NCBI RefSeq assembly: GCF_003752415.1
Contig: NZ_RKHG01000001.1
Span: 1,674,001 to 1,738,000 of the forward strand
Origin: Luteococcus japonicus
GTDB lineage: Bacteria; Actinomycetota; Actinomycetes; Propionibacteriales; Propionibacteriaceae
Length of the DNA stretch: 64,000 nt
Direction of reading: 5' to 3'
Part shown: positions 57,259 through 64,000 of the stretch, piece by piece
Layout: every line of letters starts with the position of its first letter
Numbering within the stretch: position 1 is the stretch's first letter
Program-made: the position numbers and the translations under genes
Notes under the pieces: model-generated
The model's database searches: none
Seen by the model: only the letters and a program-made list of their open reading frames with translations
Told to the model about the DNA's origin: nothing

Positions 57259-58452
57259 ATGAAGCAGTCCACCGAACGCATCCTGACCACCCACGTCGGC
57301 AGCCTGCCACGCACCGAGTCGCTGCTCGCCGCCAACCAGAAGCGGGACAGCGATCCCGAGGCCTTCGCCGCCGAGCTCACCCGCGCCGTTGACGACGTGG
57401 TCGCGCGCCAGCGGGAAGTGGGCATCGACGTCGTCAACGACGGCGAGTACGGCCACGCCACCACCAAGAGCCAGGACTTCGGCTCCTGGTGGACCTACTC
57501 CTTCGACCGCACCAGCGGCCTGGAGCTGAACCCGGAGAACGTCTGGGACACCCGGATCGCGAAGTCCACGCCGGGCCAGGTCGTGCTCACCGGCATGAAC
57601 GATCGCCGGGACCGGCAGCTCTTCCGCGCGGTCTACGACGATGCCGCCGCGGTGCATCCGACCACGCGCCAGCGCCCGCAGGCCGTCGCACCCTTGGGCT
57701 ACATCGGCCAGGAGGCCGTCGCCGCCGACACCGGCAACCTGACCGCCGCGATGGCCGCCCACGGCGCCGACGAGGGCTTCATCTGCGCCATCGCCCCGGG
57801 CGCCGCCTCCCGCATCGGCAGCGCCGTGCACGCGGATGACGAGGCCTACATGGACGACTGGGCACAGGTTCTGCACCAGGAGTACAAGGCGATCACCGAT
57901 GCCGGGCTGATCGTGCAGATCGACGACCCGTCCATCGCGGAGAACTTCGACCAGATCGACCCCGAGCCCAGCGTCGCCGACTACCTCGCCTTCACCCAGA
58001 AGCGCGTCGACGCCCTCAACAAGGCCCTGGAGGGGATCCCGGCAGAGCAGGTGCGCTTCCACCTGTGCTGGGGTTCGTGGAATGGCCCGCACACCACGGA
58101 CTTCCCGATGTCCGAGCTGGTGGAGCTGATGCTCACCATCAACGCGCAGGCCTACACATTCGAGGCCGCAGGGTCTCGCCACGAGCACGAGTGGGAGGTG
58201 TGGAAGGACGTCGAACTACCCGACGGCAAGCTGATCCTGCCCGGCGTGGTCACCCACCACACCAACATCGTCGAGCACCCCCGCCTGGTGGCGCAGCGGA
58301 TCGAGCGCTTCGCCGACGCGGTGGGCCGCGAGAAGGTCATCGCCTCCACCGACTGTGGCCTGGGCGGACGCATCCACCCGGACATCGCGTGGGCCAAGCT
58401 GGGCGCCCTCGTCGAAGGCGCCCAGCTGGCCAGCGAGAAGCTCTGGGCCTGA
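57259..58452 (+). CDS. MetE C-terminal-type (cobalamin-independent methionine synthase-like) protein
   Basis: A 397-residue zinc enzyme of the UROD/MetE superfamily. It has the MetE catalytic-half layout without the N-terminal MetE domain. Start: ILTTHVGSLPRTESLL. Zinc ligands are expected in FHLCWGSWNGPH (His, Cys) and STDCGLGGR (Cys). NDGEYGHATTKSQDFGSW is a substrate-loop segment of the stand-alone group. Members of this group act in methyl or alkyl transfer to thiols (methionine synthesis from a small methyl donor, or epoxyalkane:CoM-type reactions). The exact substrate is unclear. It is 147 bp after argG, with the hairpin between, and convergent with the aldolase gene. Confidence 0.8.
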   Translation: MKQSTERILTTHVGSLPRTESLLAANQKRDSDPEAFAAELTRAVDDVVARQREVGIDVVNDGEYGHATTKSQDFGSWWTYSFDRTSGLELNPENVWDTRIAKSTPGQVVLTGMNDRRDRQLFRAVYDDAAAVHPTTRQRPQAVAPLGYIGQEAVAADTGNLTAAMAAHGADEGFICAIAPGAASRIGSAVHADDEAYMDDWAQVLHQEYKAITDAGLIVQIDDPSIAENFDQIDPEPSVADYLAFTQKRVDALNKALEGIPAEQVRFHLCWGSWNGPHTTDFPMSELVELMLTINAQAYTFEAAGSRHEHEWEVWKDVELPDGKLILPGVVTHHTNIVEHPRLVAQRIERFADAVGREKVIASTDCGLGGRIHPDIAWAKLGALVEGAQLASEKLWA

Positions 58453-58488
58453 GCCCGCTCAGCCGCGGGGGTTCAATCAGTCGAAGCA

Positions 58489-59130
58489 TCATTGCTTGGG
58501 CTGGCCATATCCCTTCAGCGCTTCGACGGTGTAGCTCACCTGTTCTTGTGTGAGCAGCTTGACGGGGGCGCCCGTGGCCATGGCCTTCAGCTGCACCTCG
58601 CAGACGTACTCGAGATATGGGAGGAGCCCGAAGGCCTTGTCCAAGGTGGCTCCAACGGTGACCGCGCCATGGTTTGCCATCAGTGCGCCATGTCGCCCCT
58701 CGAGCGCGGTGCAGACATTCTTCGCCAGCTCGTCAGTTCCGAAGTGCGCGTAGGGCGCCACCCGGATCGGACCGTTGAACATCGACGAGTAGTAGTGCGA
58801 CACGGGCACCTCGTCACAAACCAACCCGACGGCTGTCGAAGCTGGAGCATGGTTGTGCGTGATGGCCCCGGCATCGGTACCTCGGTAGACGGCCAGATGA
58901 AGCGGCAGCTCGCTCGAGGGCTTCAGAGACGCCTCGACGGGAGCCCCCGACATGTCATGCACCCCAACCATCTCAGGCGTAAGTTCCTCGTAGGCCACAC
59001 CGGAAGGCGAGATCACCACAAGATCGCCGAGCCGCACCGAGACGTTGCCGGCAGTGCCCACCACCAATCCCTGCCCTTGCATCTCCTGACAGGTGTGGAC
59101 GACGGCCCTTCGGGCCTGTTCATGCAACAT
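58489..59130 (-). CDS. Class II aldolase (AraD/FucA family)
   Basis: A 213-residue zinc aldolase/epimerase. Zinc His residues: THNHAP (two His) and VSHYYSS; the catalytic acid is in KPSSELPLHLAVYRGTD. GTAGNVSVRLGDLVVISPSG is the phosphate-binding N terminus. FucA-type enzymes cleave ketose-1-phosphates into DHAP and an aldehyde; AraD-type epimerise pentulose-5-phosphates. Next to a Zn dehydrogenase and a galactitol-type PTS under a shared operator, a retro-aldol on a ketose-1-phosphate is the best inference. Divergent from the dehydrogenase with two TTGCC-N8-GGCAA sites between. Confidence 0.88.
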   Translation of the reverse strand: MLHEQARRAVVHTCQEMQGQGLVVGTAGNVSVRLGDLVVISPSGVAYEELTPEMVGVHDMSGAPVEASLKPSSELPLHLAVYRGTDAGAITHNHAPASTAVGLVCDEVPVSHYYSSMFNGPIRVAPYAHFGTDELAKNVCTALEGRHGALMANHGAVTVGATLDKAFGLLPYLEYVCEVQLKAMATGAPVKLLTQEQVSYTVEALKGYGQPKQ

Positions 59131-59214
59131 TGGATGTGTCCTCTCGACTCGCGGGGAGCAGCCCCGTTCTTGGCTTCATTGAACTGTTGCGTCCCGGAAC
59201 GGGCCATCCAGCCA

Positions 59215-59232
59215 TTGCCCAGCAGTAGGCAA
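59215..59232. promoter_or_regulatory. Polyol-regulon operator, site 1
   Basis: TTGCCCAGCAGTAGGCAA, an 18-bp TTGCC-N8-GGCAA site, 85 bp upstream of the aldolase start. Four such sites occur in the window, all in this cluster. Confidence 0.7.
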
Positions 59233-59251
59233 TCCCCCCCCCGCCTCCTCG

Positions 59252-59269
59252 TTGCCCCCGCGGTGGCAA
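59252..59269. promoter_or_regulatory. Polyol-regulon operator, site 2
   Basis: TTGCCCCCGCGGTGGCAA, 91 bp upstream of the dehydrogenase start and 37 bp from site 1. Confidence 0.75.
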
Positions 59270-59359
59270 TTCACGAATGGTTTCCAGCAGGCATCCGGGC
59301 AAGTCTGGTCCCCGGGGCCCTCGACGACGTTGGCCCCGGCCAGAGCGAGGAGGAGTCAG

Positions 59360-60403
59360 ATGACGACGATGAAGGCCGCTGTCATGCACGGCCCCGGGGA
59401 CATCCGCTTCGAGGATGTCGCGGCACCCAGCTGCCCGAGCGGTGGTTTCGTGGTGAAGGTGGAGGCCGTTGGGCTGTGCGGATCCGACATCCGCAACCTT
59501 TCCACCGACTCCCGAAAGGGAAAATACCCCCACATCTACGGCCATGAGGTGGTGGGTACAGTCGTCGAATCCGACGCGGACTCCGAACGCGTCACCACGG
59601 GACAACGCATCTATCTCTACCCCCTGGCGCACTGCTTGGCCTGTGAATTCTGCCGCGCCGGCCACCACGAACAGTGCACCGACGTGGAGGAGTACACCGA
59701 GAGCCCCGGAGGTTTCGCCCAGTACATCTCCTACTCCGCCCGACGGGTGGATCGCGGAGCCTTCTTTCCCGTTCCTGACGGTGTGAGTCCGGAACGCGCG
59801 TCGCTCGCCGAGCCGCTGTCTTCGTGCTACGCCTGCCTGGACAACATCGACGTTCGGATCGGGGACAGCGTCGCCATCCTGGGGGCTGGCCCGATCGGAA
59901 TCTTCCTGGCGATCCTGGCCCGGATGCGGGGTGCCAGCCAGGTCTTCCTCATCGACGTCAACCAGGAGCGCCTGGACAAGGCCTCACGCTTCGGCATCGG
60001 CTTCCGCGTCGACTCCTCCCGGACCGACGCTGTCGACTTCGTGAAGCAGCACACCGGAGGCTTGGGCGCCCACAAGGTCATCTCGGCCAACCCGACAACG
60101 GCCGGCCAGCAGCAGGCTCTTCTCATGGCCCGTCGCTGTGGCACCGTCGTCTTCTTCGGGGGCGTACCCAAGGGCACCCTCACGGAGATCGACAGCAACC
60201 ACATCCACTACAGCAGCCTGTGGATCTACGGCCACTACGGCGCGAACTCCATGCAAGTGCAGAAGGCGTTCGAGATCGCGATCGACCCCGCCTTCCCGGC
60301 CGACGACGTCATCACGCATGTGCTGCCGCTCAGCGAGATCCAGCAGGCCATCGACCTGACCCGTTCCGGGGAGGCCCTCAAGGTGGTCCTGCAACCGAAC
60401 TGA
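59360..60403 (+). CDS. Zinc-dependent polyol-phosphate dehydrogenase, GatD-like
   Basis: A 347-residue medium-chain alcohol dehydrogenase. Catalytic zinc: Cys40 (GLCGSD) and the His-Glu of GHEVVG. Structural zinc: the four Cys of HCLACEFCRAGHHEQC. NAD-binding: ILGAGPIGIFLAILARMRG then VFLIDVNQERLDKA (Asp after the second strand favours NAD+ over NADP+). It resembles galactitol-1-phosphate and sorbitol dehydrogenases. GAGGAGGAG precedes the ATG. It should oxidise the polyol phosphate delivered by the adjacent PTS. Convergent with EIIA; the shared terminator lies between. Confidence 0.88.
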   Translation: MTTMKAAVMHGPGDIRFEDVAAPSCPSGGFVVKVEAVGLCGSDIRNLSTDSRKGKYPHIYGHEVVGTVVESDADSERVTTGQRIYLYPLAHCLACEFCRAGHHEQCTDVEEYTESPGGFAQYISYSARRVDRGAFFPVPDGVSPERASLAEPLSSCYACLDNIDVRIGDSVAILGAGPIGIFLAILARMRGASQVFLIDVNQERLDKASRFGIGFRVDSSRTDAVDFVKQHTGGLGAHKVISANPTTAGQQQALLMARRCGTVVFFGGVPKGTLTEIDSNHIHYSSLWIYGHYGANSMQVQKAFEIAIDPAFPADDVITHVLPLSEIQQAIDLTRSGEALKVVLQPN

Positions 60404-60430
60404 CTCGTGGGGCCACTGCTCGCCACACCA

Positions 60431-60480
60431 CACGAGGAGCGGGGTCCTGCACCAACCGGTGCAGGACCCCGCGCCTCGTG
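60431..60480. terminator. Bidirectional terminator between dehydrogenase and EIIA
   Basis: A 15-bp stem (GCGGGGTCCTGCACC at 60439-60453 with its complement at 60458-60472) is extended by an outer CACGAGG/CCTCGTG pair. It lies between convergent genes. Confidence 0.75.
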
Positions 60481-60501
60481 GGCCTTCCCTTCAACCAACC
60501 C

Positions 60502-60963
60502 TCACGCCGTCAATCGTTCTGTGACGCGCTCCGCAATCTCCTCCCGCGACGTGAGCTCCCGCAGACCCGCCATGAAGTCCGTGTCCTGGAAGCTCCTCAC
60601 CAAGGTTTTGAGGAGCTTGACGTGCGCGGCGCCGTCGGAAAAGACGAGCAGAAAGATGCAGCTCACCTCGACGGTGGAGTCGACCCCTCCCCCCATCTCG
60701 CCAGCGGTGACGGGCTTCGACAAGGTGGCCACGGAGACTGCGTCGGCCACGACATGCTCGGGGTCCGTGTGCGGCATGGCGACACCACCGTTGAGGGGAA
60801 GGCCCGTAGGGAACTGCCTCTCTCGTTCGACGACGGCGGCCTCGAAGCTCGGCCTGACCCGCCCCGCTTGCAGCAGCGGCTGCGCCATGAGCTGCAGGGC
60901 TTCTTGGTAGCTCTCGGCGGCCAGGCGTACGTGCACGAATTCGGGCTCGATGAGCTGACGCAT
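60502..60963 (-). CDS. PTS EIIA, fructose/galactitol family
   Basis: A 153-residue IIA(Fru/Gat)-type protein. Phosphorylated His65 is in NGGVAMPHTDPEHV. VVERERQFPTGLPL is the family segment before it. It transfers phosphate from HPr to the EIIB at 62351. AGAGGAATC lies about 9 nt before the ATG. Third gene of the EIIB-EIIC-EIIA operon, 79 bp after EIIC. Confidence 0.93.
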   Translation of the reverse strand: MRQLIEPEFVHVRLAAESYQEALQLMAQPLLQAGRVRPSFEAAVVERERQFPTGLPLNGGVAMPHTDPEHVVADAVSVATLSKPVTAGEMGGGVDSTVEVSCIFLLVFSDGAAHVKLLKTLVRSFQDTDFMAGLRELTSREEIAERVTERLTA

Positions 60964-61042
60964 GGAAGTGATTCCTCTCGGAGGCTGTGGTGTGAAAAAG
61001 GGTGGGGCGGGGCGCCACGGCCAGGTGACGCCCCCGCTCCGT

Positions 61043-62305
61043 TCAGCCCATGATGTGGTTCAGAAGCCCGATGATGACATTGGGGAGGTTGTAACCGAAG
61101 AAGGTGTCGGTCACCGTCCCGTCCACGGGAACCCCCGTCGCCTTCATCATCATGGTCGCCTCAGGGGCGAGCAGGTGCGTCATCCACTCGACGAACAGGA
61201 GGAAGAAGGAACCGGCCACCAGTGTGCGGAAGAGATTGCCACGGCAGCCCAGGGCGATCAGCGGAACCATGTAGACAATGCCAGTGAGCATGCCCACCGG
61301 GAAGTAGGTCATCCCGGGGATCAGGAAGGCGAACAGGATCGCCATTGGAATCAGCAGCACCGTCGCGGTGACGGCCGTCGGATCACCCAGGCCGAGGGCG
61401 ATGTCCATGCCGATGACCAGCTCGCGTCCCTTGCCGTCCTTGCTCTTGAGGTGCTTCTTCATGAAGGCCTGGGCGCCGGCACCAACGGCCGTCAGGCCCT
61501 CCATCATCACCGAGACCATGCGCGGCAGCAGGACCAGGACCGTGGCGATGCCCATGCCCATGCTGAGCACGCCCTGCCAGGGCTGGCGGGTCAGCAGGCC
61601 AAGGAAGACGCCGACGATCAGGCCGATGAAGGCGGGGTCGCCGAAGAATCCCAGCTTGTCGGAGATCTTCTCCATGGACAGGTCGATCTTGCGGAGGCCG
61701 GGGATCCGATCGATGAGCCAGTTGAAGGCAACGCCCACGGGCCACGCGAAGGAGATGTAGGACAAGGTGGAACAGGTGGTGCCCTCAATGCCGTAGTACT
61801 CCTGCCAGCTGGGGGCCACCTTCTGTGCGATGAACAGGTTGACCACCGACAGCCCGAGCACGACGAGCAGGCCGATCCAGGCCTTGCCCGTGAGGGCATA
61901 GGCCAAGGTCCCGGGGATCAGGAAGTGGATGAAGTTCCAGATGTCCACGTTGAGGACATTGGTCCAGCCCAGCACGATCATTACAATGTTGATCAACACG
62001 ATGCCGAGAATGGCCGGTGCGGCGAAGGGCGCCGCCCAGGACGCGGCACCGACGGCGGCCCATCCCACGTCGACCGTGGTGAATCCACCGCCCTGGATCC
62101 CCTTGTAGTACTCGATGGCCGGTGAGACGGCGGCCATCATGGCACCGATCACCAGCACCAGACCGGCGAAGCCGATGCCGATCATCAGGCCAGCCTTGAT
62201 GGACTTGCCAAGTGACATGCGGAAGACGAGGCACAGGATCGTCATCACGACGGGTAGCAGCACTGCCGCGCCTACATCCATGATGCTCTTGAGGAAATCA
62301 ACCAT
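61043..62305 (-). CDS. PTS EIIC, galactitol family (GatC/SgcC type)
   Basis: A 420-residue polytopic permease with about ten helices. FLKSIMDVGAAVLLPVVMTILCLVFRMSLGKSIKAGL is the typical GatC N terminus, and GWTNVLNVDIWNFIHFLIPGTLAYALTG and ELVIGMDIALGLGDPTAVTATVLLIPMAILFAFLIPG follow the family. It belongs to the ascorbate-galactitol superfamily and not to the glucose superfamily of the other PTS in the window. GGAG lies 6 nt before the ATG. Substrate is probably a polyol (galactitol, arabitol or a deoxyhexitol), by context. Confidence 0.93.
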   Translation of the reverse strand: MVDFLKSIMDVGAAVLLPVVMTILCLVFRMSLGKSIKAGLMIGIGFAGLVLVIGAMMAAVSPAIEYYKGIQGGGFTTVDVGWAAVGAASWAAPFAAPAILGIVLINIVMIVLGWTNVLNVDIWNFIHFLIPGTLAYALTGKAWIGLLVVLGLSVVNLFIAQKVAPSWQEYYGIEGTTCSTLSYISFAWPVGVAFNWLIDRIPGLRKIDLSMEKISDKLGFFGDPAFIGLIVGVFLGLLTRQPWQGVLSMGMGIATVLVLLPRMVSVMMEGLTAVGAGAQAFMKKHLKSKDGKGRELVIGMDIALGLGDPTAVTATVLLIPMAILFAFLIPGMTYFPVGMLTGIVYMVPLIALGCRGNLFRTLVAGSFFLLFVEWMTHLLAPEATMMMKATGVPVDGTVTDTFFGYNLPNVIIGLLNHIMG

Positions 62306-62350
62306 TGGGATTCTCCAGTCGGGAGTCGTTGAGGATCAGGGGCAGCAGGA

Positions 62351-62656
62351 TCAGGAGCACTGTCCGAGGACCTTGCGCGCTTCGTCGACGATCTGCTGGG
62401 CGACGGCATCCTCGTTGATCCCCGAGATCAACCCGAAGACCTGGATCACCGGCTTGTCGATCTGCTTGGCGTACCGCGCAGTGACCATGATGATGTCGAC
62501 GCTGTCGGCCATTGCCGGCACCTGCGAGACAGTGCCCTTGGAGATCTTCGCCGGGATCTTGGCATCCGCCAGGATCTGCTTGACCTTCTCCTGGGCCACC
62601 GTCGACGTGGCGATGCCGCTGCCGCAGGCGATGAAGATGCGAACCTCGTTGCTCAT
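62351..62656 (-). CDS. PTS EIIB, galactitol family
   Basis: A 101-residue IIB with phospho-Cys11 in IFIACGSGIATSTVAQEKV, the P-loop-like pattern of IIB(Gat). The rest (DIIMVTARYAKQIDKPVIQVFGLISGIN) matches the family. AAAGGAGAG precedes the ATG. First gene of the operon; divergent from the MtlR/BglG-type activator gene with two operators between. Confidence 0.93.
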   Translation of the reverse strand: MSNEVRIFIACGSGIATSTVAQEKVKQILADAKIPAKISKGTVSQVPAMADSVDIIMVTARYAKQIDKPVIQVFGLISGINEDAVAQQIVDEARKVLGQCS

Positions 62657-62782
62657 GTGACTCTCCTTTGGGTCGTTCTGACCCCATGCTCGATCCGGGT
62701 CAGGGTGCCTCCGGCGCAAGAAGTGTGGCCAGCAAGGCACACCGAGACTGCTCCTTCGGCCTGGCTCCCGTCACTTGTCCCA

Positions 62783-62800
62783 TTGCCGCCGTGGTGGCAA
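62783..62800. promoter_or_regulatory. Polyol-regulon operator, site 3
   Basis: TTGCCGCCGTGGTGGCAA, 127 bp upstream of EIIB and 85 bp upstream of the regulator start. Confidence 0.75.
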
Positions 62801-62807
62801 CCACCCG

Positions 62808-62825
62808 TTGCCGCCACGGCGGCAA
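62808..62825. promoter_or_regulatory. Polyol-regulon operator, site 4
   Basis: TTGCCGCCACGGCGGCAA, a perfect 18-bp palindrome, 25 bp from site 3 and 60 bp before the regulator start. Confidence 0.8.
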
Positions 62826-62884
62826 CGGCGCGGGAGTTCTTCCTAGTGAGAGCAAAGTAGGCTGTACGGGAGAGAAGGTGGACC

Positions 62885-64000
62885 ATGATTTCCTTCACAG
62901 AACGCCAGAGACTTCTGGTCCAGCTCCTGGGAGAACTGGAGGGCGCCATCTCGGGCGCCGATCTGGCGGCGCTGCTCGGCGTCAGTGTCCGGACAGTGCG
63001 TTACGACGTGCAGCGCATCAATCGGGGTGCGCGCACCGAGCTCGTGGTGGCAGACAATTCCGGCTACCGCCTGGCCCGCGTCGCCTTTCGTGACTACCTG
63101 GCACAGGCCAGCGAGGTCAGGGCCCCCATCAGCAATGCTGAACGCATCCTGCTCTACCTCACGACCCATCCCGTCACGGATGTCTACGATGTGATGCGCG
63201 ATTGCTACGTGAGTGAGACGGTGGCCCGTAGTGAGCTGGCGCGGATCTCCTCCGAACTCACGGGCAAGGGCCTTTCGCTGAGTGTGACTGGGGCTCGGGT
63301 CCAACTCGCGGGGAGCGAGTTGGCCCTGCGCAAGCTGATCGGTCAGATGGTGCGTCAGGCGATGGACACCGTCGTCGGCCGCAACCAACGCATAGCCGTT
63401 CATTTCCCCGATATCGATGTCACGAGCGTGCATGGCACCGTTGCGAAGGTGCTGGCCAAGAGCCGGATCGAGCCGAACGACATCCACCTCGAGAATGCCG
63501 TCATTACCCTCGCCATCTGTCTGCAGCGCAGGAACTCGCCCCTAACCCAAGGCGAATACAGCCCCAGCCGCTGGTCCCCCTCCGTTGACAAGATCACCCT
63601 CGAGGTCCTTGAGGCGCTGGTCGACCTGTACCCCGACCGACCCTTGGCAGCCGTCGACCGAGCCTACGCACGAGACGTCTTGGCAGTGACGCTCAGCGGG
63701 CACCTCCAGATCGATGAGGTTCCCTCCGAGGTGGACCAACAGCTCGAGAATGCCGTCCGGCAGGCTCTCACCCTCACCATCGAGAAGTTCAACCTGCCGA
63801 TCCCCGCGGACAAGCAGGCCAAGCTCTTCCGCGGTCTGTCGGAACACACCGCTAGACTCGTGGCCCGCAACAAGCTGATGCCCTACTTCCACAATGGGCT
63901 CAGGGAATCGTTGAAGTCACGCTCCCCGCTCATCTACGATGCCGCCGTCTACATGGCTGACAGGCTCTTCCGGGGTCTTGGCCTGCCCCTCCCCGACGAC
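62885..64000 (+). CDS. PRD-containing transcriptional activator, MtlR/BglG type (3' end outside window)
   Basis: Open frame of at least 372 codons from the ATG at 62885 to the window end. N-terminal HTH_11 (MISFTERQRLLVQLLGELEG, SGADLAALLGVSVRTVRYDV), a second winged region (about 85-150, LTTHPVTDVYDVMRDCYVSE), then PRD domains (one about 190-290, NDIHLENAVITLAICLQRR; a second from about 305, QALTLTIEKFNLPIPADKQAKLF with the conserved His of LSEHTARLV). PRD His residues are phosphorylated by PTS proteins to tune activity. The EIIA/EIIB domains often found at the C terminus would lie past the window. Divergent from EIIB; it is the obvious regulator of sites 1-4. Confidence 0.88.
   Translation, partial: MISFTERQRLLVQLLGELEGAISGADLAALLGVSVRTVRYDVQRINRGARTELVVADNSGYRLARVAFRDYLAQASEVRAPISNAERILLYLTTHPVTDVYDVMRDCYVSETVARSELARISSELTGKGLSLSVTGARVQLAGSELALRKLIGQMVRQAMDTVVGRNQRIAVHFPDIDVTSVHGTVAKVLAKSRIEPNDIHLENAVITLAICLQRRNSPLTQGEYSPSRWSPSVDKITLEVLEALVDLYPDRPLAAVDRAYARDVLAVTLSGHLQIDEVPSEVDQQLENAVRQALTLTIEKFNLPIPADKQAKLFRGLSEHTARLVARNKLMPYFHNGLRESLKSRSPLIYDAAVYMADRLFRGLGLPLPDD

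What the first reader, a model, noticed from the sequence alone, without database searches (positions are those of the whole stretch)
58489..64000. Self-contained polyol regulon defined by four TTGCC-N8-GGCAA operators
Seen: the 18-bp palindrome occurs at 59215, 59252, 62783 and 62808, two in each divergent intergenic region of one cluster, and I found it nowhere else in the window. Genes: class II aldolase, GatD-like Zn dehydrogenase, galactitol-family EIIABC and a PRD activator. Known: MtlR-type activators bind TTGnC...GnCAA palindromes. Inference: polyol is imported as polyol-1-phosphate, oxidised to a ketose-1-phosphate, and split by the FucA-like aldolase to DHAP plus an aldehyde. This differs from the classical galactitol route, which needs tagatose-6-phosphate kinase. 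Candidate substrates: L-fucitol, D-arabitol or another polyol.
Basis: partly seen in the sequence, partly recalled or inferred. Interest (0 to 1): 0.78.

Follow-up and report, generated by a model that had tools for sequence, protein, structure and literature searches.

The report
Polyol uptake-and-split gene switch
A small, self-contained set of bacterial genes, probably switched by its own sugar-sensing activator through a conserved DNA site, that probably imports a sugar alcohol, oxidises it and splits it in two by a route for which I found no description.

Summary
In detail: four exact TTGCC-N8-GGCAA palindromes lie at the stated places; the 3.45-Mb genome holds one other, inside a 991-codon frame. 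Eleven other Propionibacteriaceae genomes carry the activator, and all 11 have a site with at most one mismatch beside it (consensus YTGCC-N8-GGCAR), usually within a 25-bp tandem. It is very probably that activator's operator. The window's layout looks like a rearranged single divergon.

The proposed pathway (phosphotransferase uptake, oxidation, class II aldolase split) gains support. Of 28 loci with a related transporter, 23 have the dehydrogenase; all 23 also have a class II aldolase gene, of several types, while none was detected in the other 5. This suggests a polyol-1-phosphate 2-dehydrogenase feeding a dihydroxyacetone-phosphate aldolase; neither activity is tested.

The substrate is open. 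D-arabitol through D-ribulose-1-phosphate is my first choice (about 0.3); sorbitol, erythritol, ribitol, L-fucitol and rare hexitols are not excluded. The dehydrogenase is not GatD by curated score. A literature lead ties propionibacterial erythritol use to L-erythrulose-1-phosphate, but P. freudenreichii ferments erythritol and its type-strain genome lacks this transporter.

The parts
58489..59130 (-). FucA-like class II (Aldolase_II, PF00596) aldolase, 213 aa
   Evidence: 8.2e-49; Glu74, His92, His94, His154, Tyr113 and Tyr208 kept against E. coli FucA (residue roles recalled)
59215..59232 (.). operator 1, TTGCCCAGCAGTAGGCAA
59252..59269 (.). operator 2, TTGCCCCCGCGGTGGCAA (37 bp from operator 1)
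59360..60403 (+). zinc-dependent medium-chain alcohol dehydrogenase, 347 aa; proposed polyol-1-phosphate 2-dehydrogenase
60431..60480 (.). 23-nt inverted repeat with 4-nt loop between the convergent dehydrogenase and EIIA genes; possible bidirectional terminator (inference)
   Evidence: the consensus terminator scan did not list it
60502..60963 (-). PTS EIIA (Gat-type), 153 aa
61043..62305 (-). PTS EIIC of the EIIC-GAT family, 420 aa
   Evidence: 1.7e-67; below the galactitol-specific cut-off
62351..62656 (-). PTS EIIB, 101 aa (start ATG at 62656 chosen by me; the mechanical ORF starts at 62740)
62783..62800 (.). operator 3, TTGCCGCCGTGGTGGCAA
62808..62825 (.). operator 4, TTGCCGCCACGGCGGCAA (25 bp from operator 3; ends 59 bp before the regulator gene)
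62885..64000 (+). PRD-type transcription regulator (probable activator), 635 aa in full; the gene continues to position 64792 outside the window
   Evidence: His321, Cys401 and His553 invariant in the 8 aligned sequences

Best explanation
An inducible polyol regulon. A PRD activator (HTH, PRD, EIIA-like and probably EIIB-like parts) senses the phosphorylation state of its own Gat-type PTS and binds tandem YTGCC-N8-GGCAR operators in both divergent promoters, switching on the aldolase, the dehydrogenase, EIIABC and probably itself. The PTS imports a polyol as its 1-phosphate. The zinc dehydrogenase oxidises it at C2 to a ketose-1-phosphate. The FucA-like class II aldolase cleaves that to dihydroxyacetone phosphate (DHAP) plus a short aldehyde. 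Shown by computation: gene content, operator conservation, co-occurrence of dehydrogenase and aldolase, conserved active-site residues. Inferred: activation, the position of oxidation, cleavage, substrate. My most likely substrate is D-arabitol (D-arabitol-1-phosphate to D-ribulose-1-phosphate to DHAP plus glycolaldehyde), at about 0.3. The confidence below is for the general mechanism.
For: Operators: 4 exact sites against 0.07 expected; 4 of 5 genome sites in this cluster; in 13 regulator- or cluster-linked intergenic regions (2 own, 11 relatives) 21 sites with at most 1 mismatch against a mean of 0.16 (most 3) in 1000 first-order resamplings, and 5 in 219 kb of flank; 9 of 13 regions show a 25-bp tandem when sites with up to 2 mismatches are counted. 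Regulator: HTH, PRD and EIIA domains; invariant His321, Cys401, His553. Pathway: of 11 relatives 10 have the cognate EIIC (62-74%), 8 the dehydrogenase (64-73%), 7 the same aldolase (69-74%). Of 28 EIIC loci from titled genome records (6 of them the same contigs as among the 11) 23 have the dehydrogenase; 23 of 23 have a class II aldolase gene, and none of the other 5 matched any of four aldolase queries. The aldolase type differs along the EIIC tree while the dehydrogenase stays, and all 12 aligned aldolases keep the His triad and the Glu. A PTS enzyme I N-terminal domain occurs twice in the genome.
Against: No binding, expression or enzyme data exist. None of the families listed for these proteins is over its NCBIfam cut-off. 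The other class II aldolases of the comparison are only 27-35% like the window's and 7 of the 12 aligned rows show what is kept, but the six non-FucA rows (aldA, aldB) lack the FucA tyrosines, so their cleavage is less certain. Acidipropionibacterium genome G002 has no regulator or aldolase match at the cut-offs used (its EIIC was not searched); it may be A. jensenii (3.0 Mb fits, identity not established), which is D-arabitol positive, and that would break the D-arabitol link. Sorbitol follows the cluster equally well in the same table, and better if G002 is A. jensenii. Enterococcus innesii, whose strain GAL7 has a related locus with a frameshifted dehydrogenase (L038), is negative for D-arabitol, erythritol and adonitol and variable for sorbitol (PMC8744253, passages seen). 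Acidipropionibacterium has a second aldolase cluster with FGGY kinases that could explain its phenotypes. Deep forks of the EIIC tree are unsupported, and 5 of the 28 loci have the PTS without dehydrogenase or aldolase.
Confidence: 0.72

Rival explanations
1. Erythritol (or D-threitol) regulon: erythritol phosphate is oxidised to erythrulose-1-phosphate and split to DHAP and formaldehyde, the PTS counterpart of the route reported for Propionibacterium pentosaceum.
For: A 1968 paper titled on the role of L-erythrulose 1-phosphate in P. pentosaceum is cited in PMC4437456 and PMC10733421 (passages seen; the 1968 paper itself not seen). E. coli FucA joins DHAP and formaldehyde (PMC10733421). The strains of the Acidipropionibacterium table are erythritol positive.
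Against: P. freudenreichii ferments erythritol in 21 of 21 strains but its type-strain genome has no cognate EIIC. FucA gives the D, not the L, erythrulose phosphate. The P. pentosaceum route starts with a kinase (recalled), not a PTS.
Confidence: 0.12
2. Sorbitol or another hexitol (galactitol, allitol, altritol) regulon, cleaving a hexulose-1-phosphate to DHAP plus glyceraldehyde.
For: Sorbitol is positive in A. virtanenii, A. acidipropionici and A. thoenii and negative in three A. jensenii strains and in P. freudenreichii; it is variable in E. innesii. The dehydrogenase matches sorbitol dehydrogenases in the PDB (1.6e-32; the best match, 4.2e-33, is an unassigned dehydrogenase). The EIIC relative on a Klebsiella plasmid sits with genes annotated rpe and hxlB. 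L-tagatose-1-phosphate (from galactitol) and D-allulose-1-phosphate (from allitol) fit FucA stereochemistry (recalled).
Against: Ketoses from sorbitol have the wrong stereochemistry for a FucA-type aldolase (recalled). Dulcitol (galactitol) is negative in P. freudenreichii and is not named in the Acidipropionibacterium passages seen. Other sorbitol loci were not searched for.
Confidence: 0.25
3. L-fucitol or another deoxypolyol regulon, made into L-fuculose-1-phosphate and split to DHAP plus L-lactaldehyde.
For: The aldolase is FucA-like and L-fucitol has one primary alcohol to phosphorylate.
Against: The FucA Phe206 position is Leu, Ile or Met in the five aligned members of the window's subfamily, two of them from kinase clusters; the curated FucA model TIGR01086 scores 138 bits against 400. 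I made no search for L-fucitol phenotypes.
Confidence: 0.08
4. The palindromes bind another regulator and the PRD protein acts elsewhere.
For: No direct binding evidence; the two natural MtlR boxes shown in PMC10992428 are TTGTCA/TGCCAA pairs of 19 and 21 bp, not this 18-bp form.
Against: A site lies beside this regulator gene in all 11 relatives examined, with mostly fixed spacing and distance, also beside a paralogous PTS cluster that carries the same regulator family (L028), and both window divergons of this cluster carry them.
Confidence: 0.08

Closest known systems
MtlR of Bacillus (PRD activator of the mannitol PTS operon)
   Same: PRD activator with PTS-like domains serving its own PTS genes; palindromic sites with TTG...CAA ends upstream of -35; the activator also drives its own promoter (PMC3217849, passages; PMC10992428, passages).
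   Different: Half sites and spacing differ: TTGCC-N8-GGCAA, 18 bp, mostly in 25-bp tandems, against TTGTCA-N7 or N9-TGCCAA. Regulation here is not tested.
Galactitol gat system of E. coli (GatABC, GatD, GatYZ)
   Same: EIIABC of the Gat family and a zinc alcohol dehydrogenase.
   Different: EIIA, EIIB, EIIC and dehydrogenase are below the curated galactitol cut-offs; a FucA-type aldolase is in the cluster (GatYZ recalled for E. coli); one PF01116 and no PF01791 gene in the genome.
D-arabitol PTS of Bacillus methanolicus (AtlABCD) and Listeria
   Same: PTS uptake, then an arabitol phosphate dehydrogenase (PMC6685057, passages).
   Different: There the product is a pentose phosphate (xylulose 5-phosphate was assayed); no aldolase step appears in the passages seen.
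Ribulose-1-phosphate aldolase of haloarchaea (NF053831)
   Same: Best NCBIfam match of the aldolase, 162.8 bits.
   Different: Below its 300-bit cut-off; no PTS in that pathway (recalled).
FGGY-kinase clusters of Propionibacteriaceae
   Same: Same aldolase subfamily (59-70% identity) next to a zinc dehydrogenase.
   Different: FGGY kinase instead of PTS and a different, about 30% identical dehydrogenase.

Membership tests
[quoted passage not shown]
   (residue roles recalled)
[quoted passage not shown]
   TIGR01086 137.9 against 400.25; PRK08087 152.6 against 264
ribulose-1-phosphate aldolase NF053831 | score above cut-off | tested here: not met
   162.8 against 300
galactitol-1-phosphate 5-dehydrogenase (GatD) | score above cut-off | tested here: not met
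   91.4 against 550
galactitol-specific EIIC (TIGR00827) | score above cut-off | tested here: not met
   277.4 against 542.2; passes the broader Pfam EIIC-GAT cut-off
PRD-type PTS-controlled activator (MtlR/LicR-like architecture) | HTH plus PRD plus EIIA-like domain, with candidate phosphorylatable His and Cys | tested here: met
   Pfam HTH_11, PRD, PTS_EIIA_2; one PRD found by Pfam; His321, Cys401, His553 invariant in 8 sequences
PRD-type PTS-controlled activator (MtlR/LicR-like architecture) | binds the operator and activates in response to the PTS substrate | not testable with these tools
   only comparative evidence
classical galactitol pathway | tagatose-bisphosphate aldolase of GatY/KbaY or LacD type | tested here: inconclusive
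   one PF01116 gene, not subtyped, and no PF01791 gene in the genome
classical galactitol pathway | tagatose-6-phosphate kinase and GatZ | not tested
   not searched

The most novel reading that the evidence does not exclude
This is one member of an undescribed, widespread class of PTS polyol pathways (Propionibacteriaceae, Firmicutes, a Coriobacteriaceae and a Synergistaceae genome) in which a new polyol-1-phosphate 2-dehydrogenase is fixed and the class II aldolase is repeatedly swapped, giving DHAP plus a C1-C3 aldehyde and by-passing the pentose phosphate pathway; for D-arabitol it would create a D-ribulose-1-phosphate route.
Probability: 0.35. Interest if true: 0.66.

Novelty: new variant of a known kind. 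Interest (0 to 1): 0.5.

Why it matters
It joins a conserved, testable operator to a probable polyol route with an unassigned substrate, in a family where several polyol pathways (erythritol, adonitol and xylitol in P. freudenreichii) were reported as unresolved (PMC4437456, passages seen). If the exchange of the aldolase while dehydrogenase and transporter stay is real, aldol cleavage is the step that selection keeps, and a new enzyme activity is predicted.

Tried and rejected
Relaxing the motif: with 2 mismatches in the window or YTGCC-N8-GGCAR in the genome (36 sites, backwards control 62) no excess is seen. I checked 21 of the 32 sites of the relaxed pattern outside the cluster against frames called by my own script: 19 fall inside a predicted frame, 2 do not (genome 3170760, about 80 bp before a 760-codon frame, and 695526); these two were not followed, and 11 sites were not checked.

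Plasmid search with the dehydrogenase: no match at 1e-60. The best plasmid EIIC (48%, Klebsiella) lies in a cluster with genes annotated rpe, SDR and hxlB and no annotated class II aldolase. I first read rpe as a pentitol sign, then dropped that, since RPE-like enzymes also act on hexulose phosphates (recalled).

P. freudenreichii as carrier: rejected, no cognate EIIC in the type-strain genome. Erythritol as first choice: considered because of the 1968 lead, put down because that species uses erythritol without the transporter.

A promoter scan of 58400-63000 found no sigma-70-like site (0 found, 0.4 expected). Bombilactobacillus mellifer and Pectinatus phenotypes gave nothing usable. The metabolic reconstruction PMC7650540 holds none of the six polyol terms searched. 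No structure prediction was run.

Papers: PMC4437456, PMC10733421, PMC6920887, PMC8744253, PMC4156108, PMC10491768, PMC6685057, PMC3217849, PMC10992428, PMC6201924: passages seen; PMC6256612: whole text; PMC7650540: a term search without hits; others only in search listings. That I found no description of this route rests only on searches of an open-licence library.
Full report
OBSERVATION. The pattern TTGCC-N8-GGCAA occurs four times in the window, at exactly the coordinates given, and 100 shuffles never gave more than one. The window is bases 1674001-1738000 of a single-contig genome of 3,452,849 bases, an unnamed member of the family that holds Acidipropionibacterium, Cutibacterium and Propionibacterium. 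Genome-wide there are five exact sites; the fifth lies inside a 991-codon frame. So four of five exact sites, and all those outside a predicted frame, belong to this cluster.

GENES. In order: aldolase (minus), dehydrogenase (plus), EIIA, EIIC, EIIB (minus), PRD regulator (plus, running beyond the window to 64792). A 23-nt inverted repeat separates the convergent dehydrogenase and EIIA genes. None of the NCBIfam families listed for these proteins is over its cut-off. The aldolase aligns over residues 6-209 with E. coli FucA and keeps the zinc histidines, the catalytic Glu and two Tyr; the Phe206 position is Leu here (residue roles recalled). The dehydrogenase is a zinc medium-chain enzyme; Asp199, invariant in the 9 aligned sequences, lies where NAD-specific enzymes of this fold carry an acid (recalled), so NAD is my inference.

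COMPARATIVE OPERATOR EVIDENCE. Regulator orthologues were found in 12 of 198 family genomes at 1e-60 or better, the window's own included. I took the intergenic stretch beside the regulator in all 11 others, plus the window's two regions, with ends set by me from tblastn matches. The 13 stretches (3,252 bp) hold 21 sites with at most one mismatch, 17 of them in the relatives, against a mean of 0.16 in resampled sequence; 5 occur in 219 kb of flank. Every relative has at least one. In 9 of 13 stretches two sites (up to 2 mismatches allowed) lie exactly 25 bp apart, and the nearest site ends 57-59 bp before the regulator start in 8 of the 12 regulator-facing stretches. The spacing exceptions are the window's aldolase-dehydrogenase region (37 bp apart), L027 (34), L028 (one site) and L030 (84). 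The consensus is YTGCC-N8-GGCAR. This is strong evidence that the palindrome is the regulator's operator, but it is comparative, not biochemical, and the relatives share ancestry.

LAYOUT. In the seven relatives with all six genes the order is aldolase and regulator one way, dehydrogenase-EIIB-EIIC-EIIA the other way, from one shared promoter region. The window has two divergons, each with its own operator pair; I read this as a rearrangement. Among the other four relatives: L029 has the PTS but no dehydrogenase or aldolase, and its regulator match comes in two pieces; L028 carries a paralogous PTS (EIIC 31%) under the same regulator family; L030 has a different class II aldolase; and L025, an unnamed Cutibacterium genome (G060; its size suggests C. 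acnes, recalled), is decaying, with a stop in the regulator frame, an internally deleted dehydrogenase and no aldolase.

PATHWAY EVIDENCE. A scan of titled genome records with the EIIC alignment gave 28 loci; six of them (L031-L036) are contigs of the 11 relatives, so the two sets overlap. The same dehydrogenase (49-73% identity) is in 23; in L038 it is frameshifted. All 23 carry a class II aldolase gene, and the other 5 (L031, L039, L045, L048, L057) matched none of four aldolase queries; several loci are cut by contig ends. The aldolases are of different kinds: FucA-like in four titled Propionibacteriaceae, another FucA type in a Synergistaceae genome, one further type in 14 loci (Firmicutes and one Coriobacteriaceae) and another in 4 (three Firmicutes and a Propionibacteriaceae MAG). 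On the EIIC tree the window type lies inside the group that carries the 4-locus type, with support, while deeper forks are open. I read this as non-orthologous replacement under selection for the same step, which supports PTS, dehydrogenase, aldol cleavage. It also implies oxidation at C2, next to the phosphate, because a DHAP aldolase needs a ketose-1-phosphate; GatD by contrast oxidises C5 (its name). In 11 of the 28 loci a glycerol-1-phosphate-dehydrogenase-like gene is also near.

SUBSTRATE. If the aldolase keeps FucA stereochemistry (3R,4R; recalled), the possible polyols are erythritol or D-threitol, ribitol or D-arabitol, L-fucitol, galactitol, allitol or D-altritol; sorbitol, mannitol, xylitol and L-arabitol would not fit. 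The table is said to be positive for erythritol, adonitol, D-arabitol and L-arabitol in all strains tested, and shows sorbitol positive in these three; the A. thoenii column is quoted from another paper. P. freudenreichii DSM 20271 (contig 2,649,166) lacks the EIIC, and 21 of 21 P. freudenreichii strains (DSM 20271 not necessarily among them) ferment erythritol and adonitol but not D-arabitol, sorbitol or dulcitol. So erythritol and ribitol do not need this cluster there, while D-arabitol and sorbitol follow it. D-arabitol fits both the stereochemistry and these four genomes. Against it: G002, a fifth Acidipropionibacterium-genus genome without regulator or aldolase match (EIIC not searched), could be A. 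jensenii, which is D-arabitol positive and sorbitol negative. I therefore give D-arabitol only about 0.3.

RELATED CLUSTERS. The same aldolase subfamily (59-70% identity) sits beside FGGY kinases and about 30%-identical dehydrogenases in further Propionibacteriaceae, including a second cluster in Acidipropionibacterium. These are likely kinase-based cousins and could account for erythritol use there; this was not tested.

VERDICT. The operator finding is confirmed and strengthened; the three-step route is likely; the substrate is open. It is a new variant of a known kind (PRD-controlled PTS polyol operon).

Noticed in passing
L025:8078-10600 (unnamed Cutibacterium genome G060): Decaying copy of the cluster: stop codon in the regulator frame, internally deleted dehydrogenase, aldolase not found.
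   Followed up: partly
L089:5489-13101 and L094:3573-11079: Second Acidipropionibacterium cluster: two FGGY kinases, FucA-like aldolase 68-69% identical to the window's, DhnA-type class I aldolase, zinc dehydrogenase; a possible seat of a kinase-type polyol pathway.
   Followed up: partly
L125, L127-L129, L131-L135: Propionibacteriaceae loci with the same aldolase subfamily beside an FGGY kinase and a zinc dehydrogenase; a GpsA-like frame, named by eye only, is also seen in L125, L129 and L134.
   Followed up: partly
L028:4854-9121 (G142): Paralogous Gat-type PTS cluster under the same regulator family, with an exact TTGCC-N8-GGCAA site.
   Followed up: no
L041, L042, L043, L045, L046, L051-L055, L057: Glycerol-1-phosphate-dehydrogenase-like gene near the PTS cluster in 11 of 28 loci; in L041, L046, L051, L053 and L054 also an HAD phosphatase gene. 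The pair recalls AraM and AraL of Bacillus (recalled).
   Followed up: partly
genome G000:C1:3170760 and 695526: Two relaxed operator-like sites not inside a frame predicted by my script, one about 80 bp before a 760-codon frame.
   Followed up: no
L038:8570-9606 (Enterococcus innesii GAL7): The dehydrogenase orthologue is split over two frames in this assembly; the species is negative for pentitols and erythritol and variable for sorbitol.
   Followed up: no
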